From contig JAUWBH010000055.1 of NCBI GenBank assembly GCA_030605085.1, positions 1 through 31,896 on the forward strand: a stretch of 31,896 bases of DNA. Reading direction: 5' to 3'. Source of the stretch: Promethearchaeota archaeon. GTDB taxonomy: Archaea; Asgardarchaeota; Lokiarchaeia; Sigynarchaeales; SOKP01. The notes beneath the pieces are model-generated. The model made no database searches and had not been told where the DNA came from. It saw only the letters and a program-made list of their open reading frames with translations. This document shows positions 3,393 to 24,792 of the stretch, piece after piece. Numbering within the stretch: position 1 is the stretch's first letter; each line of letters starts with the position of its first letter. Position numbers and translations under genes: made by a program.

Positions 3393-4359
3393 TCATCCAA
3401 TCATTGTTCTCCAAACATCATATCCTTCTTTCTCGATAGACTTGGCAATCTTTTCCTGTGATTCTTTGTTTTCAGCTAAAGCAATAACCAAGCCACCCCT
3501 ACCTGTTCCCGTCATTTTAGCACCTATTGCTCCATTTTTTAGCGCTATATTCACTAACTTATCGTTTATTTCTCCTGAAACCGTGATTTTTTGAAGCAGT
3601 TTGTGGTTTTGATTTATTAAATTACCCAAAGTTGTAACATTTCCTTCAAGCAAGGCTTTTTTTGCTTTATCTGATAAAATATTATATTCACTAAATATTT
3701 TCTCAAATTTTTCTTGATTAGCTTCTTTTAGGCGCCGAACATCAGCAACTACTTCTGTTGTTGAAGCTGTTATTCCTGAATTTGCGATTACTAATGGCAT
3801 CTTTTTTGGTGATTGAAGGAGGGTCATTGTATTTTTTCCACCACTTAAATTTTTCACAAACCAAATCAATCCACCATAAGTAGAGGCCGTGTTATCAATA
3901 CCCGAAGGCGTTCCATGGTAGGCTCTCTCTCCTTCATACGCAGCTTCATTTATCTTATCATCATCTAACTTTATATTAAAGCAATCATTAAGGGCACGAG
4001 CTAATGATGTACATTGAGCGGCAGAAGCACCAACTCCACTCGCAGCAATCAAATCTCCAGCAAAAGTTATTTCAAGTTTTTGACTCTCTATATCTATTTT
4101 TAAATGCTCGATTACATTTTTAATCGATTGCATTGTTTCATCGTATTTCGTTTTTTTATAACCAAGTGTTGCGGGTCTCTGGTCGTTGACGACCCAACCT
4201 TGTCCATCAACGACTTTAACATCTGCAGATGTGTAGGAGCCTAATGCTGATACGATTGCTGGAAATCCATACACAACAAAATGATTGCGTTTATTCCTGA
4301 ATTGGGAATTAAATTTCGCCAAAAAGTATGGTCTTTCCATATCCTATTCCAGTTCCCAT
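3393..4359 (-). CDS. mvk: Mevalonate kinase, interrupted by a 31-base candidate intron
   Basis: A GHMP kinase that makes 5-phosphomevalonate from mevalonate and ATP. The body shows GDLIAASGVGASAAQC (the ATP loop), GTPSGIDNTAS and GAKMTGTGRGG near the end. The continuous frame begins at ATG 4340, but its first 17 residues look random and lack the family's first strand. In another frame, ATG 4359 follows a strong GAGGT ribosome site 7 bases upstream (overlapping the stop of the preceding gene) and encodes GYGKTILFGE, which is exactly the missing motif; it then runs into TAA. Removing 4284-4314 joins it to HFVVYGFPAIV, giving GKTILFGEHFVVYG and a normal 311-residue enzyme. I therefore choose 4359 as start with exons 4359-4315 and 4283-3393. 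Without removal the kinase would lack its N-terminal motif. Confidence 0.88.
4284..4314 (-). other. Candidate bulge-helix-bulge intron (31 nt) in mevalonate kinase
   Basis: Minus-strand structure: central helix GGCG (4320-4317) against CGCA (4289-4286), three pairs plus a terminal G-A; 5' bulge AAA (4316-4314); inner helix TTTAATTCC with GGAATAAA, one A bulged; loop CAATTCA; 3' bulge ATC (4285-4283). Cutting after the second base of each bulge removes exactly 31 bases and yields the codons GGC GAA CAT for the GEH motif. The outer helix is weak, which is the poorest part of the model. The first ten bases around the junction, GAAATTTAAT, are identical to those at the roadblock insertion. Confidence 0.7.
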
Positions 4360-4369
4360 TTTCTTTACC

Positions 4370-4759
4370 TCATTTTGTCTCAATAGTTCCTTCTGAACCA
4401 TTAACAATAATTTTTTGGCCAGATTTAATATTTTTAATATCAATTTTATCCACACAAGGAATTTCACTAATAATGCAACCTACCGCGATGATTGTATCGA
4501 TTTGTTCGTTTACGATTGCTGCAGGAGCCATATTATTTTTTTTCATTCTATACATTGTATACGACCCTACAGTCGAACCTTTACCAGTAGGAAAGACTAA
4601 GACTTTTCCTGTTATGGATTGACCTTCGAGTTCATGTCCAACTTCGACAACTTTACCAGTATCAGGGTCAACGCCACCATAAAATGAAATTGCGTCATTG
4701 GTTACAATCGCTTCTGCCTCAACGGTTCCTTTATAGATTTTTCTTCCTTTTATCTTCAT
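4370..4759 (-). CDS. Phosphomevalonate dehydratase small subunit (DUF126 / aconitase X small)
   Basis: With the next-listed large subunit it dehydrates 5-phosphomevalonate to trans-anhydromevalonate 5-phosphate, the step specific to the archaeal mevalonate pathway described in Aeropyrum. The 129-residue protein is the swivelling domain of the aconitase family. It shows VFPTGKGSTVGSYTMYRM, with the conserved Ser of the GKGST loop, and AAIVNEQIDTIIAVG. Its ATG overlaps the stop of the large-subunit gene by four bases (4756-4759), which suggests coupled translation and equal subunit supply. Its own TGA (4372-4370) overlaps the ribosome site of mevalonate kinase. Function is assigned from family and context. 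Confidence 0.92.
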   Translation of the reverse strand: MKIKGRKIYKGTVEAEAIVTNDAISFYGGVDPDTGKVVEVGHELEGQSITGKVLVFPTGKGSTVGSYTMYRMKKNNMAPAAIVNEQIDTIIAVGCIISEIPCVDKIDIKNIKSGQKIIVNGSEGTIETK

Positions 4760-5955
4760 TTTATTGCCTCCTCAATACATTTTTCGATTGATCCAATTTT
4801 AACTTTAAAGTTATTCTTAGCACGTCCATAATAACACGCTTTTGCTGAATCTACCATGATTCCCTTAAAGCGCCCTTTAATTGGAGCTACAACACAACAA
4901 GTATCCGCTGCAAACTTTGCTCCAGCATCTTCAATAATTTTAGAAAAACCAGCTTCATCTGCAATTTTTTTTGTAGGTCGGGCAGTAGTTATCCAAAATT
5001 CTTTTTTTACTTGCTTTCCTTTTATTAATTTTGCTATTTCCTCGATTTCGTGAATTGAAGCGTGTGGACACCCAATACTAACAAAATCTATTTCAAGATC
5101 ATCGTCAATAAGTTCAGCACGAGTTTTATCTAAATCGTCCTGATTAATTTCATATACAACATCACTTGGTTTGGGGTATTTATTATATTCTGGAGTTATT
5201 TCTTCCATGTGGAATAGTGCTGTTCCACCGTAAGTAGCTACGGAAGCACAAAAAGATTTGAGTTCCTCAACAGTAGCTGATGGGATTCCCGTAATATAAG
5301 GTATTTTTTTCCCTAATTTAATTAATTTATCACCAATTATTTTTCCCAATACACCAAATTCGTCAGTACCTTTAATTGGAGCATTTATCTTAACTAAGAC
5401 TTGTCCATGACGATTTTCATCCAAATGATAACCGTATTTAGGCGTTTTTCCAGTTAAAGCCGCTGCTAATGCGCTTGGTCCCCCCTCACGATTCGTTCGA
5501 GCTCCAATAACAGAGTTAGAATAACAAACCGCACTACTTTCAGCCCAAGCAATATGTTGTCCATAATGAGGCGCGTTTCCAATTAAATATGGTGTACAAG
5601 AACATGTCGTAATTATTCCCATTTTAGCAAAGGCATCTATAGCGCGATTCTGATTTTTAGCAAATTCTTCATCTATTCCTAATGCTTGCCAATTTTCGCG
5701 ATCCATTCCTGCTGGATTTAAAGTCGTTAAAACTCTAACTTTCCCATCTTCGGCCATTTCGCTTAAAAATTCCAATCCCGCTTCGCCAAGATTGGCGTAA
5801 GAAACTCCTGCTATTTGTACACTATAAACTTTGACCATGTATTCAGCTTCAAATATTTCACCTAAAGTGGTTAATATTTCCATAGATTTTTGAGTAGATC
5901 TTCCTTGCTTGCCATCCAACATGTCTTTTTCTTCTGATGTTAATTTCAATCTCAT
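4756..5955 (-). CDS. Phosphomevalonate dehydratase large subunit (aconitase X catalytic subunit)
   Basis: Catalytic subunit of the iron-sulfur phosphomevalonate dehydratase. The 399 residues match the aconitase X (DUF521) family. Family motifs include VQIAGVSYANLGEAG, TTCSCTPYL with Cys118 and Cys120, HIAWAESSAVCYSNSVIG, RTNREGGPSALAAALTG, SIGCPHAS and DTCCVVAP. Several of these cysteines would hold the [4Fe-4S] cluster, though I cannot say which three from sequence alone. It starts at ATG 5955, 13 bases after the decarboxylase gene, and overlaps the small subunit by four bases. The archaeal mevalonate setting makes phosphomevalonate, rather than cis-3-hydroxyproline as in bacterial relatives, the likely substrate. 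Confidence 0.93.
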   Translation of the reverse strand: MRLKLTSEEKDMLDGKQGRSTQKSMEILTTLGEIFEAEYMVKVYSVQIAGVSYANLGEAGLEFLSEMAEDGKVRVLTTLNPAGMDRENWQALGIDEEFAKNQNRAIDAFAKMGIITTCSCTPYLIGNAPHYGQHIAWAESSAVCYSNSVIGARTNREGGPSALAAALTGKTPKYGYHLDENRHGQVLVKINAPIKGTDEFGVLGKIIGDKLIKLGKKIPYITGIPSATVEELKSFCASVATYGGTALFHMEEITPEYNKYPKPSDVVYEINQDDLDKTRAELIDDDLEIDFVSIGCPHASIHEIEEIAKLIKGKQVKKEFWITTARPTKKIADEAGFSKIIEDAGAKFAADTCCVVAPIKGRFKGIMVDSAKACYYGRAKNNFKVKIGSIEKCIEEAIK

Positions 5956-5968
5956 CGACTCCTATATC

Positions 5969-7270
5969 TTAAAAATATTTATTAATGTCTATTTTAGGAA
6001 AATCTGCTTTATTAAAACTCTTACCTTTAGCAAAAAGTGGTTTTGTTAAATCAAATCCAATTTTAGTTGTCATTTTGGTTCCTGACTCTGCGCTAGGATC
6101 TAAACTACTTCCCGGTTCTTTATCTTTAATAACCATTCTAATATCGCCTTGAAAGCGAGTTGCCATTGCCCATTCCACAGATAATGGGTCATAAATATTA
6201 ATATCTTTATCTACAATAAAAACATGTTTACAACTACTATGACCAGAAAAAGCACTATTTATCGCTTTTTTACCATCTTCTTCTGACTTTTTATCAATCT
6301 GTACAATTGCGTGTAACCATGAGCATCCCCCAGGATTTATATTTACATCTAAGCATTTAACTCCTGCGCCATTCACTTTATTGAAAATAGTTGGTTCTCG
6401 TGGCATTCCCATCAATATTTTGTGCTCAAGCGCACCAGGTAATAAGGCTTGCCAAATCGCATCCTTTCTATGAGTGATTTTTTTAACTTCAAAAACAGGT
6501 TCTTCTCTTACAATATCATATGTTTCTGTCAAATCGACAAAAGGACCCTCAGCATGTTTTTCTTCCATATAGACCCGTCCTTCTAAAACAAATTCAGCTT
6601 CTGCAGGAATTAAAAGATCAACCGAACTTGCTTTAACAACTTTAATTGGCTCTAATGCATTTGCAATATATAATTCATCAACGCCTATATCCACAGAAGT
6701 AGCTCCGGCAATTAGAATGTTAGGGGTATTTCCTATACAAAAAGCGACATCTAGTTCACTATTTTTTTCTAAAAATTTATGAAAATGACGACCTCTAACT
6801 ATTCGAGTAGCAAACTTTTCTTTGGAAAACTGCATAGCTCGATGAAAATCCATATTTTGTCCATAATCAGGATCTCTAGTAATAACGACAGCAGAACTAA
6901 TGTAGTTTCCACCGTCCTTTTCGCAATGGAGTAAAATTGGTAATTTGTCTAAATCTACATTCGTTTCTATTACTTCTTGACAAGGAGCGTTTGATATAAC
7001 ATCTGGTTCTGAGCGTTCTGATATTGCTTTAGAAAGCATTGGTATGAGATCTGCGGGAGATACACCAAAATAAGTAGCAATTACATTTTTAGTACAGAAT
7101 AAGTTGCCAACCAACCGGAATTTAGATTCTTTAATATTATTAAACATTATAGGGATTGGTTCTATCTCTTTTAAAATACCAGAGATCTCTAATCTCTTCG
7201 AAACTTCAACATCCACTTTACGAATTAATTTTTTTTCTTCAATTTTTTTTAAATATTCTCTAAAGCCCAT
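5969..7270 (-). CDS. UbiD-family anhydromevalonate phosphate decarboxylase
   Basis: A prenylated-FMN decarboxylase expected to turn trans-anhydromevalonate phosphate into isopentenyl phosphate, the substrate of the kinase encoded downstream. UbiD traits: an N-terminal MGFREYLKKIEEKKLI, then GQNMDFHRAMQ, RIVRGRHFH, the prFMN-site region around AGATSVDIGVDE, AEAEFVLEGRV, AEGPFVDLTETYD with the acidic residues of the active site, and LPGALEHKILMGMPRE. About 433 residues, usual for the family. The frame opens at a TTG (7279), but ATG 7270 gives the normal UbiD start and is preferred. The cofactor needs a UbiX flavin prenyltransferase, which is not in this window. Genes before and after belong to the same pathway. 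Confidence 0.92.
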   Translation of the reverse strand: MGFREYLKKIEEKKLIRKVDVEVSKRLEISGILKEIEPIPIMFNNIKESKFRLVGNLFCTKNVIATYFGVSPADLIPMLSKAISERSEPDVISNAPCQEVIETNVDLDKLPILLHCEKDGGNYISSAVVITRDPDYGQNMDFHRAMQFSKEKFATRIVRGRHFHKFLEKNSELDVAFCIGNTPNILIAGATSVDIGVDELYIANALEPIKVVKASSVDLLIPAEAEFVLEGRVYMEEKHAEGPFVDLTETYDIVREEPVFEVKKITHRKDAIWQALLPGALEHKILMGMPREPTIFNKVNGAGVKCLDVNINPGGCSWLHAIVQIDKKSEEDGKKAINSAFSGHSSCKHVFIVDKDINIYDPLSVEWAMATRFQGDIRMVIKDKEPGSSLDPSAESGTKMTTKIGFDLTKPLFAKGKSFNKADFPKIDINKYF

Positions 7271-7359
7271 AAATATCAACTCAAAAATTTATTTAAAATA
7301 ATGTAGTTATCATTAAGATAAATTTTTTTAGAGTATTTTATGAAACACCTTTTAAAAAA

Positions 7360-8640
7360 CTAAAGGTTTTCACCATTGAGTATTTTTTGTAAAACTTCTT
7401 TTGCATAATCTACTCGAATTTTTTTATCTAAAATCAATTTTTTAGATACTCTTTCTATTAAATCTTCTGGAACTCCAGCTAATTTAGCAATATTTCGCGA
7501 ATGTAACGCCATATGACCTTTTTGTATTCCTTCAGAAGCCAATGCTCTTAAAGCAGCAACATTTTGAGCCAAACCAACGGCTGCTGCCACTTGAGATAAC
7601 TCTTCTGCACTTTTCACATTTAAAATTTTTAATGCTAATTGCGCCATTGGATGTATTTTAGTCATTCCCCCGATTATTCCAAGTGCTAATGGAATTTCTA
7701 TTTCTCCAACTAAATTTCCTTCGGAATCAACATCAAATTTCGTTAAAGGAGAATATTTTCCGCTTAAAGACGCATACGCGTGAGCTCCAGCTTCAATAGC
7801 GCGAGTGTCGTTTCCAGTTGCTAATGTTAATGCGATAATACCATTCATTATGCCTTTATTGTGTGTAGTAGCTCTATAAGGATCAGCAAGGGCAAACTCA
7901 TACGCATTTAAGATGCCTTCAATCAATGCTTCTCCTCCTAATAACTCTTTATCAAATGTTGCTTTGCTTCTAGCTATTCGATGCGTTGCTAAATTCGAGA
8001 CAATTCTAAGATAGACTTTCCCACCACATATTTCTTCCAGATACGGGCTAATTGCTTCTGCCATAGTGTTTACTACATTAGCACCCATTGCATCTAAGAC
8101 ATTAACTAACAAGTGGAGTATTAGCATTTTTCCTTTTCTTGTTTCCAGAACTCTAATTTCAAAGTCGAATGCTCCACCACCTAATTCGTTCAAGAAAGGA
8201 TCTTGTTGGTTTGCTAATCTTATTATTTCTTCTCTGTGCTCAATTAAAGTATTTTTAGCAACTTTAATATTTTCTAGGTGAGTAATCTGAATTTGAGAAA
8301 ACATTACTGATTTAACTTTTTCAGAATGAAATCCCCCGTGTTTTCGAGCAAACCTCGCTGCATTTGATGCAGCAGCAACAACAGAAGGTTCTTCTATAAC
8401 CATTGGAATTAAATAATCTTTACTATTTATTTTAAAATTACAAGCTACACCCATTGGCAATTGATAACTACCTATAACATTCTCAATTAAAGTATCAATT
8501 TGGTTATTTGAAAAATAGCCCAAATTTTGAAGAATTTTGCATTCTTCATCATTAAGATTGAAAAGACTACATATAATTTGCTGTCGCTGTTCTATAGATA
8601 ATTTATAAAATCCAGAAATATTTGAATTGATTTCTTTCAT
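7360..8640 (-). CDS. hmgA: HMG-CoA reductase, class II type
   Basis: Reduces HMG-CoA to mevalonate with NAD(P)H, the committed step. Motifs in order: ENVIGSYQLPMGVACNF with the catalytic Glu, EPSVVAAASNAARF, DAMGANVVNTMAE (nucleotide site), THNKGIMNG with the catalytic Lys, GGMTKIHPMAQ and GHMALHSRNIA with the catalytic His. The length of about 426 residues, the lack of a membrane anchor and the spacing of the final His fit the class II enzymes of Pseudomonas mevalonii and Archaeoglobus rather than the class I enzymes common in other archaea; this suggests an old exchange with bacteria. The frame opens at TTG 8652; ATG 8640 is the more likely start. It lies 63 bases after the synthase gene. 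Coenzyme preference cannot be read. Confidence 0.93.
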   Translation of the reverse strand: MKEINSNISGFYKLSIEQRQQIICSLFNLNDEECKILQNLGYFSNNQIDTLIENVIGSYQLPMGVACNFKINSKDYLIPMVIEEPSVVAAASNAARFARKHGGFHSEKVKSVMFSQIQITHLENIKVAKNTLIEHREEIIRLANQQDPFLNELGGGAFDFEIRVLETRKGKMLILHLLVNVLDAMGANVVNTMAEAISPYLEEICGGKVYLRIVSNLATHRIARSKATFDKELLGGEALIEGILNAYEFALADPYRATTHNKGIMNGIIALTLATGNDTRAIEAGAHAYASLSGKYSPLTKFDVDSEGNLVGEIEIPLALGIIGGMTKIHPMAQLALKILNVKSAEELSQVAAAVGLAQNVAALRALASEGIQKGHMALHSRNIAKLAGVPEDLIERVSKKLILDKKIRVDYAKEVLQKILNGENL

Positions 8641-8703
8641 TATTTTTATCAACTTTTTAAAAACCTAATTGACATATCCCGTCGTAATTATTCTAATCCA
8701 AAT

Positions 8704-10332
8704 CTAATAAATATTGTGAACGGGGATATACATTGGACTCCAATTTAATAACCCAATTGTTTCGTTGATCTTGTTATCCTCAATCCCCACTCGCCGAATC
8801 TCGTATTCCAAAGAGTTTCCTTTCTTGGAATTAGAAGCAACTCTTACAAATCCATTTCTTAAGTAACTGAGATCATTTTTATCAAATTTTATTGGTTTAG
8901 AATTTAAAATGGCAAAAAGAGGGAACACACATTTATGATATCCAGAATGCCCTTTAGGACAATAATTTAATCCTTCTATGTTTGGAATAATACATCCTTC
9001 ATCACATAAATACAGAGTAAAACCTCTTTGATTATTTTGTTCGTGTTCTACAATGCGCCCTAAAAGGACCTGAGTCTTAAAATTTCCGGTCTTAATTAAT
9101 TCGTATTCGCGAACACTTCTCCGTTCTTTCATTTTGATATAATCATTTATTTTCGGACCTTTTTCTACGATACTTTTATAGTTAGGTCTTACTTTTAATA
9201 ATCCCGAAATACACGTCGCACCTGAACCGTATGAACCAAAATAAATTGTATTCTTAATACGACCATAATTTTCAAGAATGTAAATAATTTGCGCCCAAAC
9301 CGAAGCGTTATACATATTTCCAAAATGTGAGGGCACCATCAATTGCGGAAGTACCTTGTTTTTAACATTTGAAATAAACCAATGTGAAATATCTTCTAAC
9401 GGTTTTGATGTATAACCTTTTTCTCTTAATTTTAAATAAAGATATTCTGGAAGTACAGAAACATCATGTAAAAAATTATCAAGTTTCCTTAGAAGCGATA
9501 TTTTTATTTCACGCCGCTTCAATTTTGGAAGATTATTGATGTGATTTGCCCATCTTTTAAGGATTATTTGTTGCATACATTTTATTGGTAATTTAGAATA
9601 AGGCGCATGAAAGACATAATAATCAGCATGAAAATCTCCTATACTATCAACAAGATCGTCAAAAGCTCTTAACTGGAAGTTTAAATAAGTATCAACAGAA
9701 TATTTACCATTAGGTACTTGAGCATTTATTTCATTAATGGGTCTAAAAAAATCATTAACATTGCCCGAAACCTTTCCAAATTTTTTACTAAATACTGCTA
9801 CTCGTGGATTCTTTGAAATAACAAATGCCACCGCCCCCGATCCTTGAGTAGGCTCGCCTGGACTGCCTAATTCATAAGATGAAATGTCTGCATTTATAAT
9901 AAGAGCTTTTTTTATAATCTCTTTTTCTATCAAACCAATGGCATTCAAAATCGCTAATGTGCCCGAAGCGCACGCATTATATACATCTTGCGTAATTGAA
10001 TTTGGTGAAATGCAAAGTAATTCGGCAAAAATGTTAGAAACTGATTTTACGGCATAGGTCACCGTCTCTGTTCCGACAAAAATTGCGTCAATCTCTTTAG
10101 GACTGATATTACCTTTAGTTAACGCATGATAAGCTGCTTTCAACCCAATTGAGATAATATCTTCGTCAAGCTCTGGGATTCTTATTTCTTTTGAGAATAA
10201 TCCTTGACTATATTTCTTGGGGTCGACTTTCCTTTTAACGGCTAGCTCTTCCAAATTTATGTAATATCTTGGAGCGTGAAATCCTACAGAATCAATCCCT
10301 ATGTTCGAAAATAAGTAATCGTTGGATATCAT
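8704..10332 (-). CDS. HMG-CoA synthase with an extra cysteine-rich C-terminal domain
   Basis: Condenses acetyl-CoA with acetoacetyl-CoA to HMG-CoA. The thiolase-fold part spans about residues 10-385, with the catalytic triad Glu89 (FVGTET), Cys121 (YNACASG) and His242 (VFHAPYSK), plus GSYGSGA near 367-372. At 542 residues it is far longer than the roughly 350 of most archaeal enzymes. The extra 140 residues carry Cys443, Cys447, Cys458, His462, His466 and Cys468, a likely metal site within a small beta-rich domain. In other archaea a separate DUF35 protein with a zinc ribbon bridges thiolase and synthase; the extension could serve a similar role, but this is a guess. No thiolase lies in the window. 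First gene of the row; start ATG 10332. Confidence 0.92.
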   Translation of the reverse strand: MISNDYLFSNIGIDSVGFHAPRYYINLEELAVKRKVDPKKYSQGLFSKEIRIPELDEDIISIGLKAAYHALTKGNISPKEIDAIFVGTETVTYAVKSVSNIFAELLCISPNSITQDVYNACASGTLAILNAIGLIEKEIIKKALIINADISSYELGSPGEPTQGSGAVAFVISKNPRVAVFSKKFGKVSGNVNDFFRPINEINAQVPNGKYSVDTYLNFQLRAFDDLVDSIGDFHADYYVFHAPYSKLPIKCMQQIILKRWANHINNLPKLKRREIKISLLRKLDNFLHDVSVLPEYLYLKLREKGYTSKPLEDISHWFISNVKNKVLPQLMVPSHFGNMYNASVWAQIIYILENYGRIKNTIYFGSYGSGATCISGLLKVRPNYKSIVEKGPKINDYIKMKERRSVREYELIKTGNFKTQVLLGRIVEHEQNNQRGFTLYLCDEGCIIPNIEGLNYCPKGHSGYHKCVFPLFAILNSKPIKFDKNDLSYLRNGFVRVASNSKKGNSLEYEIRRVGIEDNKINETIGLLNWSPMYIPVHNIY

Positions 10333-10345
10333 TAGCGTCTCTTTT

Positions 10346-10360
10346 CTTATTTTATAATTT
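10346..10360 (-). promoter_or_regulatory. Likely TATA box of the mevalonate gene row
   Basis: The minus strand reads AAATTATAAAATAAG about 15-28 bases before the ATG of HMG-CoA synthase. An AT-rich TATA element at that distance fits a transcript with little or no leader, common in archaea. The background is so AT-rich that a chance match is possible. Confidence 0.35.
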
Positions 10361-10655
10361 TTAATTTAATCTTAATCTATATTATCCCTCTTGAAATTTT
10401 ATCTTTCCCTTTTTTCAGGTTAAATGCAAAATTTATAAAATCCATAAAACCAAGATAGTTTATTTAACGGGATAAATATGTATTTATTTAAAAAAAAAAA
10501 TGATTTTGCTATCGATAACATCAGGATTAAATATAAATGTTTCAACCAATCTAATATTGTTAATAGTTCAAATTCTTAAAAATCGTATATTTTCAAATTA
10601 AAATTGTGAATAAGGTCATTTATTTATAATCTTAAATTTAATTATTTGGTGATCT
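10361..10655. other. Divergent intergenic region, no gene seen
   Basis: Together with 10333-10360 this is a 323-base gap between the divergent HMG-CoA synthase and M28 peptidase genes. It is AT-rich, contains stops in all frames and a run of eleven A near 10490, and must hold promoters for both directions. I see no RNA gene or repeat in it. Confidence 0.5.
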
Positions 10656-11798: not shown

Positions 11799-11823
11799 AA
11801 CCAACCTAATTGAATATCTTGAA

Positions 11824-12197: not shown

Positions 12198-12212
12198 TTT
12201 AAGGGATAATAA

Positions 12213-15426: not shown

Positions 15427-16041
15427 ATTTTTAACGATAGATTTAAAACTAATTTCTATTTTAAACAGAATACGGTTGAATGGAAAAAATTTATTCCACT
15501 ATTCATCTTAATTTTAACAATTGGATATTTAGCATTAGCATCTTATGTTATTATAAGTTCTGGGACTAAAGACTTTGCACCAATATTACCAGGGAATAAT
15601 ATATCTGACATAAAAATTTTATTTATAGTGATACCACTGATAATGTGTTTGCTGGTAATCTTCATTAGATTTATCGCCATTATTAATTTTAAAATTTCAA
15701 CGATTTTTCTTAGAGATTACGAATATTTTTATGTTAACCTTGGAGATCGGCCATTTACAGCAAGAAACTTGATTGCAAGAGCTTTACTTCCCGTATTTAT
15801 GACTTAAATGTTTTCTCAATTAATTATTGATGGATTTCCTTCAATAATGGGTCCTATGGGCAGGGATAGGATTATTGCTATCATAATACTTTCCTTAATT
15901 TTGTCTCCAATAGTAACTTTATTAATGCTTCCGATATAGGTATTTAAAGATAGCGGCGTCGTAAAAGTTCTCAAAAAGCCGAAAAAAAGAGATAAATCTC
16001 GTAATCTGTGTTTTTTCTTACTCACCTTTCTTTCGTTTTAG
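15427..16041 (+). pseudogene. Broken membrane-protein gene with two internal stops
   Basis: One frame stays coding-like over 205 codons but carries TAA at 15805-15807 and TAG at 15937-15939. It encodes a segment around EWKKFIPLFILILTIGYLAL (membrane span), a second span (IKILFIVIPLIMCLLVIFI), a polar part DYEYFYVNLGDRPFTARNLI, a third span IIAIIILSLILSPIVTLLML and the basic tail KDSGVVKVLKKPKKRDK. The TAG sits where a Trp codon would fit (LPI-stop-VFKDSG), a one-base change. No start codon is found in frame; ATG 15389 is in another frame. I do not recognise the family. Unlike three other broken genes here, I could not fit an intron structure at these stops, so simple decay is preferred. Confidence 0.7.
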
Positions 16042-16236
16042 AATTAAGGATATAATGAGCGTCTTCTCTATTTTAAATAAGGGAGTGAACCCGTTTTTTG
16101 GATTTTTATAAGATTTTATAAATATTTATAAAATTTTAACGATCTGTTGAAACAATATTTTTTTTTAATTCCTAAAAATAATATATAATAACCGCTTTTG
16201 AAATATTTACTTAGAAAGAATCCTCAGTCTTAAATA

Positions 16237-18177: not shown

Positions 18178-18275
18178 TTAATTTTTATCTAAATCAATAA
18201 GTATAATAAAATTAATTTTAATAAATACTTAAAAAAAAATATTAAAGATTAAGTTAAAAATAAGAGAATTTACTC

Positions 18276-20028
18276 ATGGGAAAAGAGAAAAAGAAGGAAA
18301 AAAAAGAGAAAAAAGGAAAAAAAAAGAAAAAGGAAAAAAAGAAAGCTAAAAGTAAGAGCGAAACAAAAAAAAAGAAATCTCAAGCTGTCGTCTCAAAATT
18401 ACCCCCGGGAGTTTCACTTGGAAATCCTATAGACCGTTCTGCTGATAAACTTTTTTTAGGAACGGATTATTACGAAATCTATAATTGGCAATACGATAGA
18501 GCATGGGCAGAAATGCTGGCTGATGAAGAACTTTGGAGACCATTACCTTTCACCCATGGTATTGAGATGGAATTGATTATAGCAGATGATAATGGTGCCT
18601 ACCCTCCTGGAGAAGAAATGGTATTTCGAATGAAAGAAATTGTGAAAGAAGCCATTAAAATCATGAACGATATTTTATACGAGGGAAGATCTGATTTTTT
18701 ACCTGTTCCTAATTATATAAGACAGAAAGTATTAGCTAGACCATATGGAAAAGATGATGTTGAAAAAGGATATGTAATGGATATAAGATATAAGTTGCCT
18801 AACGATGCCGCAGTCGATATAGATTCTTTTGGACGAGATGGTAACGTAACCGCAATTACTTATATCTTAGAATTGGTTACACCTTATGGGGCTAAATCCC
18901 CAAAGGGGCTAAACCTCCTTGCGAATACGTGGAGGAACTTGCATATTGGGCTTCAACATTATTTTTACTGGCTAAACAGACATTGCCATCAGATTTACAT
19001 ATCATAGCTTCAGCAGTTAACCCCGTTACTAAGGAATATCAAAGAGGTCTGACCCAAAGATATATGATTTCCGTATAATCGGCTACGCAGACCACAATCA
19101 TCTCGGCTCGTTCCGTTCTGAGTTAGAAAAAATACAAGCATATTGTATGATTAGAAATTTTATTCCGCATTTAATCGCTCTCTCAGTCAATTCACCTATA
19201 ATGAACAATAAACCGACAGATGTTGTTAAAGTAATAAATAAAAGAATAACCGCTCCAAATTGCGTGCGTTCTTTAAGATTAAAACATAATACTTCAATGC
19301 TAAGTAATAACGACCCAAAACATTTTATTCCGTACTTAACTTCTACAGATGAAAATTCTAAAAATTATTTCCTACAAGTCGTCAGAAAAGCAAGCTTGGA
19401 AGACGGCAGATTTCAGGACATATTCCCTTTTACTGATTGGAATACTATCGAGATTCGTATATCAGATGCTCAGATTTCAATCTGTCGAAGAATCGGTATT
19501 GGACTTTTAATTCAAGCGATGTGTTATAAAGCGAGAAAACTTCTTGAGCGAGGCACTTGGGTTCCAGATGCGGGTAGTGAGACTATTGCCTATAATAGAA
19601 AGGGCGCAATAGAAAGAGGTTTAATTTCTTTATTTAGGCCACAAAATCTATCGCGGGAATTTCTCGCCAAATACGATCCAGATTTTGCTGAACAATATTT
19701 AGGACCTGAAGACCAACCGATAAGATATATGACTCAAGCGGTTCAAAGAATGTTTTTTTACTTAAAGGATGAGTTAAAAGAGCTCGGCTTTTTTTATTCG
19801 CCATTTTTAAAGCCCCTATTACAATCGGTATTTGGCAACGTTTCTTATGCAGAACCTCCAATCACTGAAGCGGAATATCAATTAAGTTTATTTCAATATA
19901 AAATGGAGCAGGGAGAGGATCCTAATATCTTGTATGATTTAATTTACTTTACAATTCAATATTGTCAAGATCCTTTAAAAAATCCTCTAACGGGAGTATT
20001 GACGCTTCCTAAAGAAATGAGAGAATAA
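18276..20028 (+). CDS. GCS2-family carboxylate-amine ligase, interrupted twice (candidate introns)
   Basis: Glutamate-cysteine-ligase-like (GCS2/YbdK) enzyme that would join a carboxylate to an amine with ATP. A very Lys-rich tail of 35 residues precedes the catalytic part: FTHGIEMELIIADDNG, ITYILELVTPYG, EYQRGLT, ADHNHLGSF, IRNFIPHLIALSVNSPI and TDWNTIEIRISDAQ all match family motifs. These motifs fall in three different frames: frame one to about 18895, frame two about 18913-19057, frame three about 19087-20028. Removing 18896-18912 and 19058-19086 gives one reading frame of 569 codons including the stop, with YQRGLTQADHNHLGS rebuilt across the second junction. Residues beyond the ligase core make it longer than typical (about 370). 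An amidohydrolase follows 33 bases later. The alternative is a pseudogene with two small indels. Confidence 0.8.
18896..18912 (+). other. Candidate 17-nt intron or small tandem duplication in the GCS2 ligase
   Basis: GGGGCTAAA occurs at 18888-18896 and 18905-18913; taking out one 17-base period restores the frame as PYGAKPPCEYVEE. The two copies of GGCT can pair with each other (two standard and two G-T pairs) and each is followed by AAA, so a bulge-helix-bulge can be drawn with cuts after the second A. The inside is very short, CCCC AAA GGGG would compete, and a plain duplication explains it equally well. Confidence 0.4.
19058..19086 (+). other. Candidate bulge-helix-bulge intron (29 nt) in the GCS2 ligase
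   Basis: The best of the set. Outer exon helix GGTCTG (19046-19051) with CAGACC (19088-19093), six perfect pairs; central ACCC (19052-19055) with GGCT (19081-19084), three pairs and one C-C; 5' bulge AAA (19056-19058); inner helix GATATAT (19059-19065) with GTATAATC (19073-19080), one A bulged; loop GATTTCC; 3' bulge ACG (19085-19087). Cutting after the second base of each bulge removes 29 bases, joins CAA to GCA and restores the frame through the conserved ADHNHLG motif. Confidence 0.72.
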
Positions 20029-20061
20029 AAAATAAATTCAAAAAAAAAATCAGAAATATAT

Positions 20062-21642
20062 ATGCTAACAGCAACGATAGAACAAGCCGGAAAATCCGAT
20101 TTATTTAACATGGCTAAAAAAAAAAAAAAACAGATTGAAAATATATTCGTAATTGACTGTCATTCTCATTTAGGGCACGATATCGACGACGCAAGTATGA
20201 TGAATCCTTTAGCACCAGGCTCTGGGACATTTGATTTTTGGGGAAATGTTGAGGGTAAAGTTAAAGCAGAGTTGGAAAATTCCAACGAATTATCTTTTAC
20301 AACTAATCTTAACGGAAAACCTACCAAAATATCGTGGTCTTTTAACCCATATCCATTCACAGATAAATTATATAGCGCTCTTGAGAAATTAGATCAAAAA
20401 CATTCTGATTTAAAAGAAAAATCTAAGTTTTATTCGTTCATTGACCAAGGCGTTTGTTTTCCCTTTCAAGATAAATTTCGCGATAAATATCCTGAAGCAT
20501 TATATCGTGCGAGTAACATTAATGTTTCTCGCTTCACTACACGCTTTCCATTCTCTATGAAATTAATAGGATATTGCCGTTGTGACCCCTCGGAGGGAGA
20601 TAAAGCAGTAAACGAAGTAAAATACGCATGCGAAGCGTTAGGGTTGAGAGGTCTGAAATTACATCCTCGAAGCGAAGGATGGATTGATAGTATTCATTCT
20701 GATAAAGCAATAAAGGTTCTCATTGAAGCTGCGAAACATTCTATGCCAATAATATTCGATACTCGAGGAAAAGGAAGCATAATGGAAATAGGAGATTTAA
20801 TTAGATCAACTAGAAACATATTAAAATCAAGCCATCCAAATTTAATACCTCATTTTAAGGTTATAATTGCTCATTTCGCTCAAGGTAATGTTGGAGATTA
20901 CGACGTTTACAATACAATAGTTCAACCAAACACATATGGCGATTTATCTATGTTGCATGGAGAAGGAGCCGGTAATTTTTTCGAAGATTTTCGAAAATGG
21001 TTTATTTCAACCAATAGACAACTCGTAGATAATCGCAAATGGAGCGAATACTTACTTTTTGGCTCAGATTATCCGTATTTTGGAGATGTCCACGCTACGA
21101 AACTATTGATTTATATCATAAATAAACAATTTTTCGATACTGGAGGAACTATTGACGATACTAGAAACATTCTCGGCTTGAACCAAATTAGGATTCTACC
21201 TGAATATAATCTTCCTCAGGTTAAAGTGGATGCAATCCCTTTGCCAAGCATCATAGTTTCTAATCCATTGTTTGAACAAAATAAAACGAGTACTCACGAG
21301 ATGGCTATTGAAAATTTAGCAAAAGCAATCATTAACAATAAAATTGATATTAAGAAATTTTGTTTACAATTTAAAGATTCATGGGATAAGTTTACAGATG
21401 AGATTTTCTTAACCTTTATAAAAAATAGTACAAAAGAAGAAATTAATTTATTTCTAACAGACCTCGTGAAAAATCAAATTACGCTTCTCGCTCCACTTCA
21501 ACCTAATATGGAATGGAAGAAATTTGGATATAAATACTTTAACCCAGAAGATAGGAGCTTTTTTGCTTCGTTTTTTAAGCGATCTTATTTGGCTATGGAT
21601 TCTATGAAAGCAACAGAATTACTCACACAGATCTTCAATTAG
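20062..21642 (+). CDS. Amidohydrolase-family (TIM-barrel) metal-dependent hydrolase
   Basis: Belongs to the amidohydrolase 2 branch. Visible metal and catalytic residues: His34 and His36 in DCHSHLGH, the strand RGLKLHPRSEG, VIIAHFAQGNVGD, and the Asp in LLFGSDYPYFGD. A segment of about 70 residues after the HxH motif and a helical C-terminal part of about 130 residues (DIKKFCLQFKDSWDKFTDEI) are additions to the barrel. The first 25 residues are partly poly-Lys; ATG 20062 and ATG 20110 are both possible starts, and no clear ribosome site helps to choose. It lies 33 bases behind the GCS2-family ligase, probably in one transcript, so the two may act on the same amide bond in opposite directions. 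The substrate is unknown. Confidence 0.82.
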   Translation: MLTATIEQAGKSDLFNMAKKKKKQIENIFVIDCHSHLGHDIDDASMMNPLAPGSGTFDFWGNVEGKVKAELENSNELSFTTNLNGKPTKISWSFNPYPFTDKLYSALEKLDQKHSDLKEKSKFYSFIDQGVCFPFQDKFRDKYPEALYRASNINVSRFTTRFPFSMKLIGYCRCDPSEGDKAVNEVKYACEALGLRGLKLHPRSEGWIDSIHSDKAIKVLIEAAKHSMPIIFDTRGKGSIMEIGDLIRSTRNILKSSHPNLIPHFKVIIAHFAQGNVGDYDVYNTIVQPNTYGDLSMLHGEGAGNFFEDFRKWFISTNRQLVDNRKWSEYLLFGSDYPYFGDVHATKLLIYIINKQFFDTGGTIDDTRNILGLNQIRILPEYNLPQVKVDAIPLPSIIVSNPLFEQNKTSTHEMAIENLAKAIINNKIDIKKFCLQFKDSWDKFTDEIFLTFIKNSTKEEINLFLTDLVKNQITLLAPLQPNMEWKKFGYKYFNPEDRSFFASFFKRSYLAMDSMKATELLTQIFN

Positions 21643-21795
21643 TTTACTTTATTCAATTAAAAGTATTTACGATTAATTTTAATTAAAAAAACTTTAGATT
21701 TTCCTAATTTTCAAATGACATTTTTACTCATATTAAAATTTTATAAATACGAATTTATATAATCTTTACAGATTTCAAAATTTTTATTAATAAAA

Positions 21796-22419
21796 ATGCC
21801 AAATTCTTATCAAATTTTTAAAGATGGATTGAAGAGATATCCATTCATAATAATAATCGGAAAATACGACCAAATTTTGGGTCCAAGAGCATTATTATCC
21901 TCATTTCCCGTAGAGAACGAGGAATTCTTTCATAACCTGTTGAAAGATGCTCTAAACACTAAAAATAAGTTCGTTATTTTGGACTTTAATAAATTTTATG
22001 CTCAAATTTGTAAAGTTACAATTGACGATCCCAATGCTAGAGGGGAGAAACAATTATACGCGATAATTTTGCTTAGACACGCTCAATATCCTTTGATTCC
22101 AACAATTCACTTTCAACGAATTGAAATGAATTTTCATAAAATAGGCAAATATAAAATTTTAATGGAAGATGAGATTTCTATTAAAGATTTTTTTAGTAAG
22201 ATTAAAGAAATTTATATTAAGAAAGAAGAGATATTACCTATCGAATCCCTTAATCTCCAAATTAGAAGTGGTATTAATACAATTCAAGGGTTTTGTGAGT
22301 TAATATTAGAAGAGAAAAAGAAAAGTGGAATTCTTTCCGAACAATTAGTTATAAATTATGTAGAAATGATGTTGGACTCTTGTAAGGAGATAATGGATGC
22401 TCTTGAAAATACTTTTTAA
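21796..22419 (+). CDS. Longin/roadblock-like domain fused to a HisKA-like helical hairpin lacking the phospho-His
   Basis: A 207-residue protein. Residues 14-125 look like a longin-type fold: FIIIIGKYDQILGPRALLSS opens it, as in eukaryotic trafficking and GTPase-control proteins, followed by strand YAIILLRHAQYPLIPTIHF. Residues 150-205 resemble the dimerisation hairpin of histidine kinases: LQIRSGINTIQGFCELILEE aligns with the usual LRTPLNAIIGFSELL, and YVEMMLDSCKEIMDALEN with its second helix. The phosphate-accepting His is replaced (Leu154), and no ATPase domain follows. Next gene, 84 bases on, is a receiver-domain protein, which suggests a docking role between them. ATG 21796. Fold assignments are by eye; the neighbourhood gives them weight. 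Confidence 0.6.
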   Translation: MPNSYQIFKDGLKRYPFIIIIGKYDQILGPRALLSSFPVENEEFFHNLLKDALNTKNKFVILDFNKFYAQICKVTIDDPNARGEKQLYAIILLRHAQYPLIPTIHFQRIEMNFHKIGKYKILMEDEISIKDFFSKIKEIYIKKEEILPIESLNLQIRSGINTIQGFCELILEEKKKSGILSEQLVINYVEMMLDSCKEIMDALENTF

Positions 22420-22503
22420 TATAATTTAAATAAATTAAAAAGTCAAAAAAAAAAAATCTTATTTTAATTTTTAAAATATTCAAGAATTAGAGATTACGGA
22501 TTT

Positions 22504-22872
22504 ATGACAAAGAATATATTTATTATCGAAGATAATGAAAGAAACATGAGGCTTTTTAAAGCGGTTTTAAAGATAATCCCTGATGTTGAAATTTATTCAG
22601 AAACCAATGGAGTTGCTGGATTGGAATTGATAAAATCTAATAATCCAGATATAATAATCTTAGATATTCAACTTCCTGATAAAGGTGGAATAGAAATATG
22701 TTCTGAGCTTCGAAAAATTGAGAAATTTAAAGAAACTCCAATTATAGCAGTTACTTCATTTGCTATGAAAGGAGATGAAGAGCGAATAATGTCAGCAGGA
22801 TTTACAGAATATATCCCAAAACCTATCAAAGTTGCTGAATTTAGAGAATTAGTCAAAAAACTTTTATCTTAA
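22504..22872 (+). CDS. Single-domain response regulator (CheY/DivK-like)
   Basis: A stand-alone receiver of 122 residues. All signature residues are present: acidic pair Glu9/Asp10 (IIEDNERN), phosphate acceptor Asp54 (IIILDIQLPD), Thr84 (AVTSFAMKGDEE) and Lys106 (YIPKPIK). It has no output domain, so it should signal by binding a partner, as DivK or CheY do. No complete histidine kinase is visible in the window; the preceding gene carries a kinase-like helical hairpin without the His. ATG 22504; no strong ribosome site. Receivers are frequent imports from bacteria into Asgard genomes. Confidence 0.94.
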   Translation: MTKNIFIIEDNERNMRLFKAVLKIIPDVEIYSETNGVAGLELIKSNNPDIIILDIQLPDKGGIEICSELRKIEKFKETPIIAVTSFAMKGDEERIMSAGFTEYIPKPIKVAEFRELVKKLLS

Positions 22873-22994
22873 AAATAGATGCAAAAAAGATAAAACAATT
22901 AAATGTGATTATTATTATAATATATTTTACCTAATTATGATTGTATAATTTTACGATATGTAGAGTGTTGTGTGATTCGAAGTTGAAAGGAATA

Positions 22995-23885
22995 ATGATT
23001 CTAGGGTTTAACGAGAACTACGAGGCGTACATCAAGACCCAATATCCAAAAAATATAGCTGAAAGTTTAAATGTTAAACCATCTGATTTAATGAATGTAT
23101 ACACGCTACATAGGATGAAGAAAAACGAGCCAAATTTCTTTCAAATGGAAATAAAGGAATTCACTATAGCGAGCTTTTTTACTGGTTTTTCGTATAAGCG
23201 ATACGTTGGGCAACCAGACTTAGCCATTACTGTATTTTTATCTGAAGATGAAATTAATCAAGATATACTTCCAAAAGACTTTGAGGGGATGGTAAGAAGA
23301 CTTGCTCATGAAATTTTGCCTCTAAGAGCTACTGAAAACGATGACCATACTATAGATGAGCTACTAAAAGATTATTTTATAAAGTTACAAAATGGAGAAT
23401 TAGAACCATACTGGGAAGAACAATCTGAAGAAGAGGTTGAAGGTGAAAAACTGACGATCGATACTATAGAAATTGATGCCTTTACGGGACAAGTAAGCAG
23501 TGAGGTAGAATTTAGCGAGGATGACGAATCCGAATTGAAGGCAGAAATTGTCGTTCAACCAAAAGATAACTTTTCTAAAGATAATTTAAAGATAATTGAA
23601 AAACAAGAATTAGAAAAGGAAATCAAGGATTTAAAAACAGCTTTAAGCGAAAAAATTGAAAAAATAAGAGAACTAACGAAAAAAATCGTAGATCAACAAT
23701 CCGATAAATCAGAACGAGAAGAATGGAAAACCAAATACGAAGAACTTACTAAGGAAAACGATCTATTAAAGGAAAATGTAAGCAAGTTAACTGAAATGGT
23801 TGCACAACAAAACGAGGAAATGGAAAAGCAAGCGCGCGATATAAGTAAACTAAAAAAAGATTTAGCCGAAAAAGAAATGGTATAA
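22995..23885 (+). CDS. Longin-like domain protein with long coiled coil, ended early by a stop codon
   Basis: The first 120 residues, starting MILGFNENYEAYIKTQYPKN and containing LMNVYTLHRMKKNEPNFFQM and IASFFTGFSYKRYVGQ, have the strand-helix order of Asgard longin-like domains, which in eukaryotes serve vesicle tethering and GTPase control. A charged linker (about 150-210) leads to a coiled coil (KIEKIRELTKKIVDQQ, and onward). I prefer ATG 22995, which has GAAAGGA just upstream; TTG 22983 and TTG 22941 are alternatives in frame. The frame stops at TAA 23883-23885, but the coiled-coil pattern continues in the same frame to 24119, so the gene appears shortened by a point mutation. Confidence 0.65.
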   Translation: MILGFNENYEAYIKTQYPKNIAESLNVKPSDLMNVYTLHRMKKNEPNFFQMEIKEFTIASFFTGFSYKRYVGQPDLAITVFLSEDEINQDILPKDFEGMVRRLAHEILPLRATENDDHTIDELLKDYFIKLQNGELEPYWEEQSEEEVEGEKLTIDTIEIDAFTGQVSSEVEFSEDDESELKAEIVVQPKDNFSKDNLKIIEKQELEKEIKDLKTALSEKIEKIRELTKKIVDQQSDKSEREEWKTKYEELTKENDLLKENVSKLTEMVAQQNEEMEKQARDISKLKKDLAEKEMV

Positions 23886-24119
23886 TCAAAGGTACTTAAT
23901 GAAGAAATTGAAAGATTAATGAAAGATAACGATCGACATTTAGATTCCATCGTAAATTTAAAACTCAAGCTTAGAGAATTAAGGAATAAAATATCGTCTG
24001 AAGTGGATGTCCAAGAAAATCTAAAAGAAGTTACAATTGACTTAAAAAAAGAGATAAAAGTTTTAAGACGAGAACGCGATCATTACAAAGAAATTATTAA
24101 AAAAAAGAATCTCATTTGA
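23886..24119 (+). pseudogene. Detached coiled-coil tail of the longin-like protein
   Basis: Directly after TAA 23883-23885 the same frame goes on for 77 codons with heptad spacing, SKVLNEEIERLMKDNDRH, IVNLKLKLRELRNKI, VTIDLKKEIKVLRRERDHYK, ending at TGA 24117-24119. A CAA-to-TAA change would explain it. A short internal start (ATG 23919) exists but lacks a ribosome site. Read-through or a separate small protein are less likely. Confidence 0.6.
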
Positions 24120-24313
24120 AATATTTTTAGAATTTTGTCGCTCTTATCCATTTTTTCATAGGAAAAACAGAATTAAAAAAAGCAAAGAATTTATGAATAC
24201 ATAATTTTTTATAAAGAAATCATTTCTATATCATTATAGTCTAATAAGATCAAATTTATTATCTCATATATAAAAACATTAAAATTATTAAAATAGGTGT
24301 ATAAACCATTAGT

Positions 24314-24792
24314 TTGGATACAAAAAGCTTCGATAGCATTTTATCCAAGATAATTAAATCTGAAAGTGGTATTAAGAAAGTTATTTTGGTTGATAGAACG
24401 GGATTAACTATCGCAAGCGTTTCAAAATTTTCCTATTTCCCAGCCGATGTCGATGGTATTGGTGCGATCGCAAGCGCGGTATTTTGTGCCTCGGAAATTT
24501 AATCTCGCTTAGAGATTAACCGAAAGAGCAGGGCAAAAACCTCGAGCTTGGCGGTTTAGATATTGTTACAAGCGAATTTTCGGGAGGTAAGATATTTGCT
24601 GCGAGTTGCGGCCCTAAGGGTGTGCTCTGCCTTATTTCCGACCCTGATATTAATATTGGGTTGATTCGCCTCATATTAAAGAGATCGGGAGAAAACCTTC
24701 GAGAAATTCTCGATGAATTCTTGTCTGAAATTCCAGAAACCTTAGATTCTGGATTGGATTTAAGCGATCTCGACGAGTTAACTCCAGATTAA
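24314..24792 (+). CDS. Roadblock/LC7-domain protein, interrupted by a 29-base candidate intron
   Basis: A roadblock/LC7 protein, a small dimer that in Asgard archaea and eukaryotes pairs with small GTPases. Exon one gives SILSKIIKSESGIKKVILVD and GIGAIASAVFCASE, then the frame meets TAA. In a second frame EQGKNLELGGLDIVTSEFSG, GKIFAASCGPKGVLCLISD and DINIGLIRLILKRSGENL continue the domain to TAA 24790. Taking out 24497-24525 joins them as ASEEQGKNLELGG and gives 149 residues, the expected length. The acidic tail LDLSDLDELTPD is usual for these proteins. Start is TTG 24314; AGGTG lies 15 bases before. Downstream of two longin-like genes, it fits a local GTPase-regulator group, although no GTPase gene is here. 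Confidence 0.82.
24497..24525 (+). other. Candidate bulge-helix-bulge intron (29 nt) in the roadblock gene
   Basis: Central helix TCGG (24491-24494) with CCGA (24520-24523), four perfect pairs; 5' bulge AAA (24495-24497) plus one extra T; inner helix TTAATCTC (24499-24506) with GAGATTAA (24512-24519), eight perfect pairs; loop GCTTA; 3' bulge AAG (24524-24526). Cutting after the second base of each bulge removes 29 bases and joins GAA to GAG CAG, restoring the domain. The outer exon helix is poor. Same length as the ligase intron at 19058. Confidence 0.72.

What the first reader, a model, noticed from the sequence alone, without database searches (positions are those of the whole stretch)
4284..24525. 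Several protein genes appear to carry 29-31-nt bulge-helix-bulge mRNA introns
Three unrelated genes (4284-4314, 19058-19086, 24497-24525) are broken by insertions of 31, 29 and 29 bases. Seen in sequence: each folds as central 4-nt helix, 3-nt bulges on opposite strands, an inner hairpin, and 5' bulge AAA in every case. The single rule 'cut after base two of each bulge' gives the right frame in all three and rebuilds conserved motifs. Known: the archaeal tRNA-splicing endonuclease cuts such structures in tRNA, rRNA and a few mRNAs (crenarchaeal cbf5). Inference: this lineage uses it widely on mRNAs. So many small protein-gene introns in about 20 kb would be new to me. Chance frame restoration alone would be about 1 in 27, before counting structures and motifs.
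Basis: partly seen in the sequence, partly recalled or inferred. Interest (0 to 1): 0.95.

Follow-up and report, generated by a model that had tools for sequence, protein, structure and literature searches.

The report
Spliced protein genes in Loki archaea
Several protein genes of Lokiarchaeia are interrupted by 28-32-base insertions that break the reading of the protein and are likely cut out of the messenger RNA by the enzyme that splices transfer RNAs, which would extend splicing within archaeal protein-coding sequence, confirmed for a single gene of another group in the papers we could search, to four more genes.

Summary
The three insertions are real and exactly where reported, and a fourth was missed (best parse 18881-18912, same gene as 19058-19086). 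They break a mevalonate kinase, a GCS-like ligase (twice) and a Roadblock protein. Relatives carry these genes uninterrupted, and leaving the insertions out restores conserved protein. The kinase insertion sits at one codon boundary in 25 of 46 alleles examined; 24 of these align without gaps and show compensatory changes in a bulge-helix-bulge (BHB) fold that includes exon bases. Its tree needs several changes, most simply one old gain and repeated exact losses. A second Roadblock site (2 genomes) and a site in the splicing-ligase gene rtcB (2 genomes) fit the same cutting rule. EndA matched in 16 of 16 genomes tested (two matches in 13), RtcB in 17 of 19. Best reading: BHB pre-mRNA introns, cut by EndA and joined by RtcB. 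No RNA evidence was available. 'Widely' is not shown: about 704 kb of homologue-covered sequence in relatives held only two sites. Known kind (crenarchaeal cbf5), new hosts and genes, two introns in one gene.

The parts
4315..4359 (-). mevalonate kinase exon 1 (MGTGIGYGKTILFGE)
   Evidence: in 25 interrupted alleles 41 of 49 minority letters of its last 11 codons are at codon position 3
4284..4314 (-). intron 1: 31-nt BHB insertion between codons GAA and CAT; 5' bulge AA|A, 3' bulge AT|C, exon GGCG pairs with intron CGCA (3 of 4)
   Evidence: same site in 25 of 46 alleles examined
3393..4283 (-). mevalonate kinase exon 2 (HFVVYG... to the stop)
   Evidence: Pfam GHMP kinase domains on the joined protein
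18276..18880 (+). GCS-like ligase exon 1 (...TYILELVTP); its last bases depend on the junction chosen
   Evidence: the same frame running through this insertion is in P0001 of another assembly, one residue different
18913..19057 (+). GCS-like ligase exon 2 (PCEYVEELAYW...RGLTQ)
19058..19086 (+). intron 3: 29-nt insertion; AA|A and AC|G bulges, central ACCC/GGCT (3 of 4), outer helix GGTCTG/CAGACC 6 bp
   Evidence: an interruption at the same codon in P0004
19087..20028 (+). GCS-like ligase exon 3 (ADHNHLGS... to the stop)
24314..24496 (+). Roadblock exon 1 (TTG start inferred)
24497..24525 (+). intron 4: 29-nt insertion; AA|A and AA|G bulges, central TCGG/CCGA (4 of 4), strong inner hairpin
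   Evidence: likely homologous interruption in P0027
24526..24792 (+). Roadblock exon 2 including the stop
   Evidence: Pfam Robl_LC7 over the joined protein

Best explanation
The four frame-breaking insertions of 29-32 nt in three genes of this Lokiarchaeia window are likely bulge-helix-bulge introns of the archaeal type, predicted to be cut out of the pre-mRNA by the tRNA-splicing endonuclease EndA. Shown by sequence: each insertion breaks the frame of a gene that relatives carry unbroken, and leaving it out at one defined junction rebuilds the conserved protein. Shown: for the kinase the junction is framed by a fold (exon GGCG with intron CGCN, 3-nt bulges, inner hairpin) whose pairs change in a compensating way between species. 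Inferred: EndA cuts after base two of each bulge, RtcB (or another ligase) joins the exons, and the intron may be released as a circle. Inferred: the kinase intron is old and has been lost exactly several times, while the other introns are younger. The EndA of relatives looks like the type with a catalytic and a non-catalytic paralogue, which in Crenarchaeota accepts relaxed motifs and could make such introns tolerable here (inferred).
For: Restoration of conserved protein at all four window sites. Relatives read across both ligase sites in one open frame in 61 of 63 genomes with a match (the other two are a match ending at a contig end and low-identity pieces on two contigs) and across both Roadblock sites in 56 of 79, with 2 more broken at a different site (the other 21 have only weaker matches, best E 4.5e-27). 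Kinase site: 25 of 46 distinct fetched alleles carry 28-31 nt at the same codon boundary, 21 carry nothing. 24 of the 25 (the 28-nt row left out) align without gaps: 83.3% of cells paired against 40-46% when partners are slid, 6 of 13 pairs with a change on both sides, 0 of 500 shuffles as high in paired cells or covariation score. The exon Gly codon that pairs with the intron is GGC in 24 of 25 interrupted alleles (the one GGT has the matching intron change) against 2 of 21 uninterrupted ones. Exon 1 evolves as coding in its own frame and all 25 interrupted alleles meet a stop 3-21 nt into the insertion. Tree: 9 label changes, at least 4 forced. Sites found later fit the same rule: Roadblock site B in G003 and G042, rtcB in G035 (BHB as minimum-energy fold) and G059. 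Joint shuffle test Fisher 9e-11. EndA in 16 of 16 genomes, two matches in 13; active-site Tyr and His in 15 of 15 alpha-type sequences, Lys pattern in 14 of 15, no His at that place by eye in 5 of 5 beta-type ones. RtcB in 17 of 19. P0001, from another assembly, has the frame interrupted at the first ligase site with one residue different.
Against: No cDNA or RNA-seq was available; splicing is unproven. The fourth central pair of the kinase is unpaired in 17 of 24 alleles, two of four window sites have a mismatched central helix, and outer helices are short or missing except at 19058. RNAalifold on the same alignment predicts only the three central pairs, and minimum-energy folds of the window's kinase and 19058 sites do not show the BHB; G059's rtcB fold pairs differently at the exon side. 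At 18881 the central helix is mostly G-U. EndA and RtcB were not examined in the window's own genome. Of genomes with the kinase intron, G007 gave only a beta-type EndA, G002 and G016 only one (alpha-type), and G002 no RtcB; these MAGs may be incomplete. A two-subunit EndA does not by itself mean relaxed substrates: a reference title in PMC12397907 names a heterotetramer with constrained specificity, and the loop linked to relaxed recognition was not examined here. Introns are rare in the relatives scanned.
Confidence: 0.86

Rival explanations
1. Programmed translational bypassing: the insertion stays in the mRNA and the ribosome hops over a hairpin, as in phage T4 gene 60 or the byps of a yeast mitochondrion.
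For: Short hairpin insertions with stop codons just after take-off look alike at DNA level (review PMC8211752, passages seen); every kinase insertion has a stop within 3-21 nt.
Against: The landing triplet should match the take-off codon (recalled): GAA against AAT, AAA, TAT, TAA or CAA, so 0 of 25 kinase alleles match. The covarying helix joins exon bases to the 3' part of the insertion, which hopping does not need. At the Roadblock B and rtcB sites the BHB-parsed junction lies inside a codon. Triplet matching was counted only for the kinase.
Confidence: 0.06
2. Assembly or sequencing errors, or decaying pseudogenes.
For: The relatives' data are mostly metagenome assemblies; a gene with in-frame stops lies nearby (15427-16041).
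Against: The same kinase insertion is in 24 other alleles; the first ligase insertion is in P0001 of another assembly, and interruptions at the second ligase site and at the Roadblock site are in P0004 and likely P0027; exons are otherwise intact and under coding constraint; insert length is narrow (28-32) and the inserts are structured.
Confidence: 0.04
3. The insertions stay in the mRNA and the downstream part is translated from its own start (for the kinase an out-of-frame ATG 19 codons upstream), giving a truncated or altered enzyme on purpose.
For: The downstream kinase frame is open for 60-81 nt upstream in many alleles, with an ATG in 14 of 25.
Against: 11 of 25 interrupted alleles lack an ATG there and three have a stop directly upstream (other start codons were not examined); exon 1 is conserved in its own frame; the protein would lack the conserved GKTILFGE; it does not explain the three-part ligase gene.
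Confidence: 0.03

Closest known systems
cbf5 (archaeal TruB/dyskerin) pre-mRNA introns of Crenarchaeota, spliced by EndA
   Same: BHB-like introns in a protein gene, relaxed motif, cut between the second and third residue, hetero-oligomeric EndA, old presence with lineage-specific losses (PMC2738675, abstract and passages seen).
   Different: Different phylum and different genes (mevalonate kinase, GCS-like ligase, Roadblock, rtcB); two introns in one gene; the TruB_N part of cbf5 shows no interruption in the 76 of 79 genomes with a match.
Haloferax HVO_1309 5'-UTR BHB element cut by EndA
   Same: An mRNA substrate of EndA; that 2020 paper says cbf5 was the only additional BHB intron reported (PMC7714728, passages seen).
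   Different: Lies in an untranslated leader, not inside a reading frame.
Archaeal tRNA and rRNA BHB introns
   Same: Same predicted motif, enzyme and size class; tRNA introns are given as 11 to 175 nt (PMC2738675 passage).
   Different: Host RNAs here are messengers, so splicing must restore a reading frame.
SIRV1 rudivirus short insertions
   Same: Cited among earlier predictions of introns in other archaeal protein genes (only the reference title seen; that they are 12-bp elements with proposed RNA-level removal is recalled).
   Different: Viral and shorter (recalled); not compared here.

Membership tests
Archaeal BHB pre-mRNA intron (EndA substrate) | Insertion inside a protein gene whose removal restores the conserved frame | tested here: met
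   for four window sites; for two more sites
Archaeal BHB pre-mRNA intron (EndA substrate) | Cuts between base 2 and 3 of two 3-nt bulges flanking a 4-bp helix | tested here: inconclusive
   The geometry can be laid on all six sites, but the 4-bp helix is complete (counting G-U) at four and has one mismatch at two; unconventional BHB motifs are described for cbf5
Archaeal BHB pre-mRNA intron (EndA substrate) | Structure conserved by compensatory change | tested here: met
   kinase site only; RNAalifold recovers only the central pairs
Archaeal BHB pre-mRNA intron (EndA substrate) | Host encodes EndA and a ligase | tested here: inconclusive
   In relatives EndA 16 of 16 and RtcB 17 of 19, but not testable in the window's own genome, and G002 and G007 with the kinase intron each lack one expected part
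Archaeal BHB pre-mRNA intron (EndA substrate) | Spliced mRNA seen as cDNA; cleavage by EndA in vitro | not testable with these tools
   no RNA reads or enzyme assays available
Crenarchaeal cbf5 intron | Intron in cbf5 | tested here: not met
   76 of 79 genomes with a match; no split of TruB_N into different frames seen in the listing; only this part of the gene was queried
Programmed translational bypass element | Landing triplet matches the take-off codon | tested here: not met
   0 of 25 kinase alleles; other sites not counted
Group I or II self-splicing intron | Catalytic RNA core of hundreds of nt | tested here: not met
   insertions are 28-32 nt; no Rfam match at gathering threshold in the window

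The most novel reading that the evidence does not exclude
Lokiarchaeia run a live pre-mRNA splicing system built on EndA and RtcB: introns are gained, perhaps copied between genes (the Roadblock intron resembles the kinase intron 20 kb away), stacked two to a gene and lost exactly, and one sits in the gene of the splicing ligase RtcB itself, so that the ligase would need splicing to make more of itself, a built-in feedback loop.
Probability: 0.25. Interest if true: 0.95.

Novelty: new variant of a known kind. Interest (0 to 1): 0.83.

Why it matters
In the papers I could search, splicing inside an archaeal protein-coding frame is confirmed for one gene, cbf5 of Crenarchaeota. Here it is predicted in four other genes of Lokiarchaeia, archaea related to the ancestors of eukaryotes (recalled). 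It offers a testable non-spliceosomal route by which protein-gene introns arise, persist and vanish in that neighbourhood, suggests that gene callers reading straight ORFs truncate core enzymes there, and makes the intron in rtcB a possible self-regulation to test.

Tried and rejected
Other split genes flagged by the scans were rejected on inspection: the IPK/isomerase pair is a gene fusion in relatives; the ligase in G011, a gene near 582.36 kb of G007 contig 9 and G038:C15 are assembly gaps (runs of N); G064:C126 is a frame shift in an acidic repeat; candidates in L024, L025, L028, L012, L095, L141 and L146 are antisense, intergenic or low-complexity; L015 near 7.68 kb is a gene with several frame changes. 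Not explained: a 5' frame shift in G001:C21 and a 36-residue partial Roadblock copy in G003:C53. Other partial matches were not all inspected, and the list is capped. Matches that stop early in G051, G061, G062, G065, G066 and G067 end at contig ends. A gene at 15427-16041 has in-frame stops but no insertion. Rfam gave nothing. Scanning 400 kb each of G011 and G006 gave no intron there. In the intron-to-intron comparison (36 pairs of nine introns) kinase and Roadblock introns exceed all 500 shuffles, but so does one pair of different sites (second ligase intron and Roadblock B) and the two Roadblock B introns do not stand out, so the test is unreliable; I lowered the probability of the novel case from 0.3 to 0.25 for this. 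Truncated relatives P0002, P0003, P0007, P0029, P0033, P0036 and P0037 may mark further sites or contig ends; I held no DNA for them.
Full report
What is there. The window comes from a Lokiarchaeia genome not held here: its kinase is 67-86% identical to those of Lokiarchaeota and Lokiarchaeia MAGs in the genome-contig scan, and 87% is the highest identity in the tree. Three genes are broken by short insertions. The kinase (minus strand; Pfam GHMP kinase; mevalonate kinase by motif and neighbouring genes, recalled) has 31 nt at 4284-4314 between GKTILFGE and HFVVYG. A Roadblock protein (Pfam Robl_LC7 over the joined protein) has 29 nt at 24497-24525. The label GCS-like is recalled; the two ligase pieces searched had no Pfam match, while one distant relative carries PF04107. 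Coordinates were recomputed.

Relatives without the insertions. In 79 genomes of the order, 63 have a ligase match and 61 of these read through both window sites in one open frame without a stop (counted by hand); of the other two, one match ends at a contig end and one genome has low-identity pieces on two contigs. For Roadblock, 56 genomes read through both sites, two (G003, G042) are broken at another site, and the remaining 21 have only weaker matches, best E 4.5e-27 (listing capped). In the all-against-all scan over 3.38 Mb, plus-strand alignment pairs give 32 nt in 47 of 47 at the first ligase site, 29 nt in 46 of 48 at the second and 29 nt in 43 of 45 in Roadblock (some genomes are represented by more than one locus).

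The kinase site is polymorphic at one exact codon boundary. Among 46 distinct alleles in the fetched DNA that match the motif, 24 carry 31 nt, one carries 28 nt and 21 carry none. Three of the 21 are from outside Lokiarchaeia by record title (Altiarchaeota, Diapherotrites), and one is titled Bathyarchaeota but falls among the Loki rows. The tree needs nine changes of the label, at least four forced by well-supported branches, and the three earliest-branching Loki pairs carry the insertion. One old gain and repeated exact losses is the simplest story; several gains are not excluded. Exact loss is what recombination with a DNA copy of spliced RNA would give (inference).

Structure. With junctions fixed by the protein, one geometry can be laid on all six sites: a 4-nt exon/intron helix (one mismatch at two sites), 3-nt bulges cut after base two, and an inner hairpin. 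For the kinase, 24 of 25 interrupted alleles (the 28-nt one left out) align without gaps. On that alignment 83.3% of cells pair against 40-46% when partners are slid by 1-3 columns; six of 13 pairs have changes on both sides (1 of 500 shuffles as high); none of 500 shuffles reaches the observed pairing or covariation score. The Gly codon that pairs with the intron is GGC in 24 of 25 interrupted alleles, and the single GGT is matched by a change in the intron; in uninterrupted alleles the codon is GGA 9, GGT 7, GGG 3, GGC 2. Relatedness inflates such counts. Against: the fourth central pair is unpaired in 17 of 24 alleles, RNAalifold finds only the three central pairs, and minimum-energy folds of the window's kinase and second ligase site do not show the motif. 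Shuffling each insertion gives joint P values from 0.0005 to 0.022 and Fisher 9e-11 over six sites; the central helix alone gives only 0.005.

Further sites. Two genomes carry a 31-32-nt insertion at a second Roadblock site (CGP|KGV), with central helix GACC/GGTT that also appears in the minimum-energy folds. A family search for RtcB, run to ask about the ligase, showed a 29-nt insertion in the rtcB gene of G035: its minimum-energy fold is a BHB with central TTGG/CCAA and a nine-pair inner hairpin, and leaving it out restores GGVGYDINCGVR. G059 has the same intron at the same place, 26 of 29 bases identical although the flanking exons are 73-78% identical; in its predicted fold the exon side pairs differently. 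Of 70 genomes with a match to the first 220 residues of RtcB, two are split there, 65 read across the site (one of them, G078, with an in-frame TGA), two end at contig ends and one match is weak (counted by hand).

Independent assemblies. P0001, from another assembly, is the window's ligase frame running through the first insertion to the same stop, with one residue different; it ends before the second site and says nothing about it. P0004, 82% identical over the part aligned, reads through the first ligase site and stops with a short tail at the second one. P0027 breaks at the window's Roadblock site with a tail that, by my reading, fits a 29-nt insertion, and P0028 (43 member sequences) ends like G042's second Roadblock site. 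These are inferences from protein; I held no DNA for them.

Machinery. EndA (PF01974) is over the cut-off in 16 of 16 genomes, with two matches in 13. Of 20 EndA loci fetched (of 29 matches), 15 are alpha-type with the active-site Tyr and His (Lys pattern in 14), and five are beta-type without that His by eye. That is the subunit pattern of the hetero-oligomeric enzyme to which PMC2738675 ascribes relaxed specificity (passages). PMC12397907 (passages) ties relaxed recognition to lineage-specific loops and cites a heterotetramer with constrained specificity, so the pattern alone is not proof; the loop was not examined. The active-site residues are named from recall. RtcB is present in 17 of 19. 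Gaps: G007 gave only a beta-type EndA, G002 and G016 only one match, G002 no RtcB, although all three carry the kinase intron. EndA and RtcB of the window's own genome are untested.

How common. Nine stretches of relatives (2.30 Mb; 703,684 bases covered by homologues) gave five insertion instances at two sites, the kinase in G001, G007, G010 and G042 and Roadblock B in G042. The scan can miss introns near gene ends. Among the listed matches of two long genes (76 and 66 of 79 genomes with a match) no case was confirmed, not all partial matches being inspected; the TruB_N part of cbf5 shows none in 76 genomes. So mRNA introns exist in many Lokiarchaeia but are few per genome in those sampled; four in one 32-kb window may point to an intron-rich lineage, which I could not test.

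Rivals. Bypassing needs matching take-off and landing triplets (recalled): 0 of 25 kinase alleles match. Translation from a later ATG fails in the 11 of 25 alleles without one (GTG and TTG not examined). Exon 1 varies at codon position 3 in 41 of 49 minority letters of its last 11 codons, and a stop lies 3-21 nt into all 25 insertions, so unspliced mRNA would give a stub of about 16-22 residues.

What is known. Papers seen as passages only: PMC7714728 (2020) states that only one additional BHB intron had been reported, in cbf5 mRNA, besides its own leader example; PMC2738675 (2009) says no splicing was confirmed beyond cbf5 although others were predicted; PMC8211752 reviews archaeal recoding. 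Searches whose listings (titles and abstract starts) showed no report of protein-gene BHB introns in Asgard archaea: all in open-licence full texts. A subscription-only or preprint report could exist.

Verdict. BHB pre-mRNA introns, a known kind in new hosts and genes, strongly supported by comparison and not yet by RNA.

Noticed in passing
window 15427-16041: A membrane-protein gene with in-frame stops; P0040 (268 aa, 55% identical over 157 aligned residues) has no stops there, so this copy looks decayed, not intron-bearing.
   Followed up: partly
window 1432-3379: Isopentenyl phosphate kinase and IPP isomerase are separate here and in L006 and L172 but form one reading frame in relatives such as L003, L024, L028 and L029.
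   Followed up: partly
window 1262-1336: A 25-residue second copy of the isomerase segment LKTGIDIAKSIVLGADIGGFAFKFL on the minus strand, perhaps a duplication relic.
   Followed up: no
window 24497-24525 and 4284-4314: The Roadblock intron resembles kinase introns (0 of 500 shuffles score as high, highest score with the L024 allele), a lead for intron copying; one pair of unrelated sites also passes this test, so it is weak.
   Followed up: partly
L282 and L293: The rtcB introns of G035 and G059 are more alike (26 of 29) than their exons (73-78%), suggesting constraint or transfer.
   Followed up: partly
L021: A chromosome titled Bathyarchaeota (bin106) has a kinase that falls among the Loki rows of the tree: mislabelled bin or transfer.
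   Followed up: no
G006a, G007a, G011a (stretches of L054-L093 and L200-L239): ARAGORN (bacterial code) calls five tRNA genes with introns of 15-29 nt, about the size of the mRNA insertions.
   Followed up: no
P0002, P0003, P0029, P0033, P0036, P0037: Ligase and Roadblock proteins from public assemblies that change or stop abruptly at other conserved places; possible further intron sites or contig ends.
   Followed up: no
window 2-1132: An ORF with a C-terminal double-CxxC pattern, TnpB-like as recalled, at the window edge.
   Followed up: no
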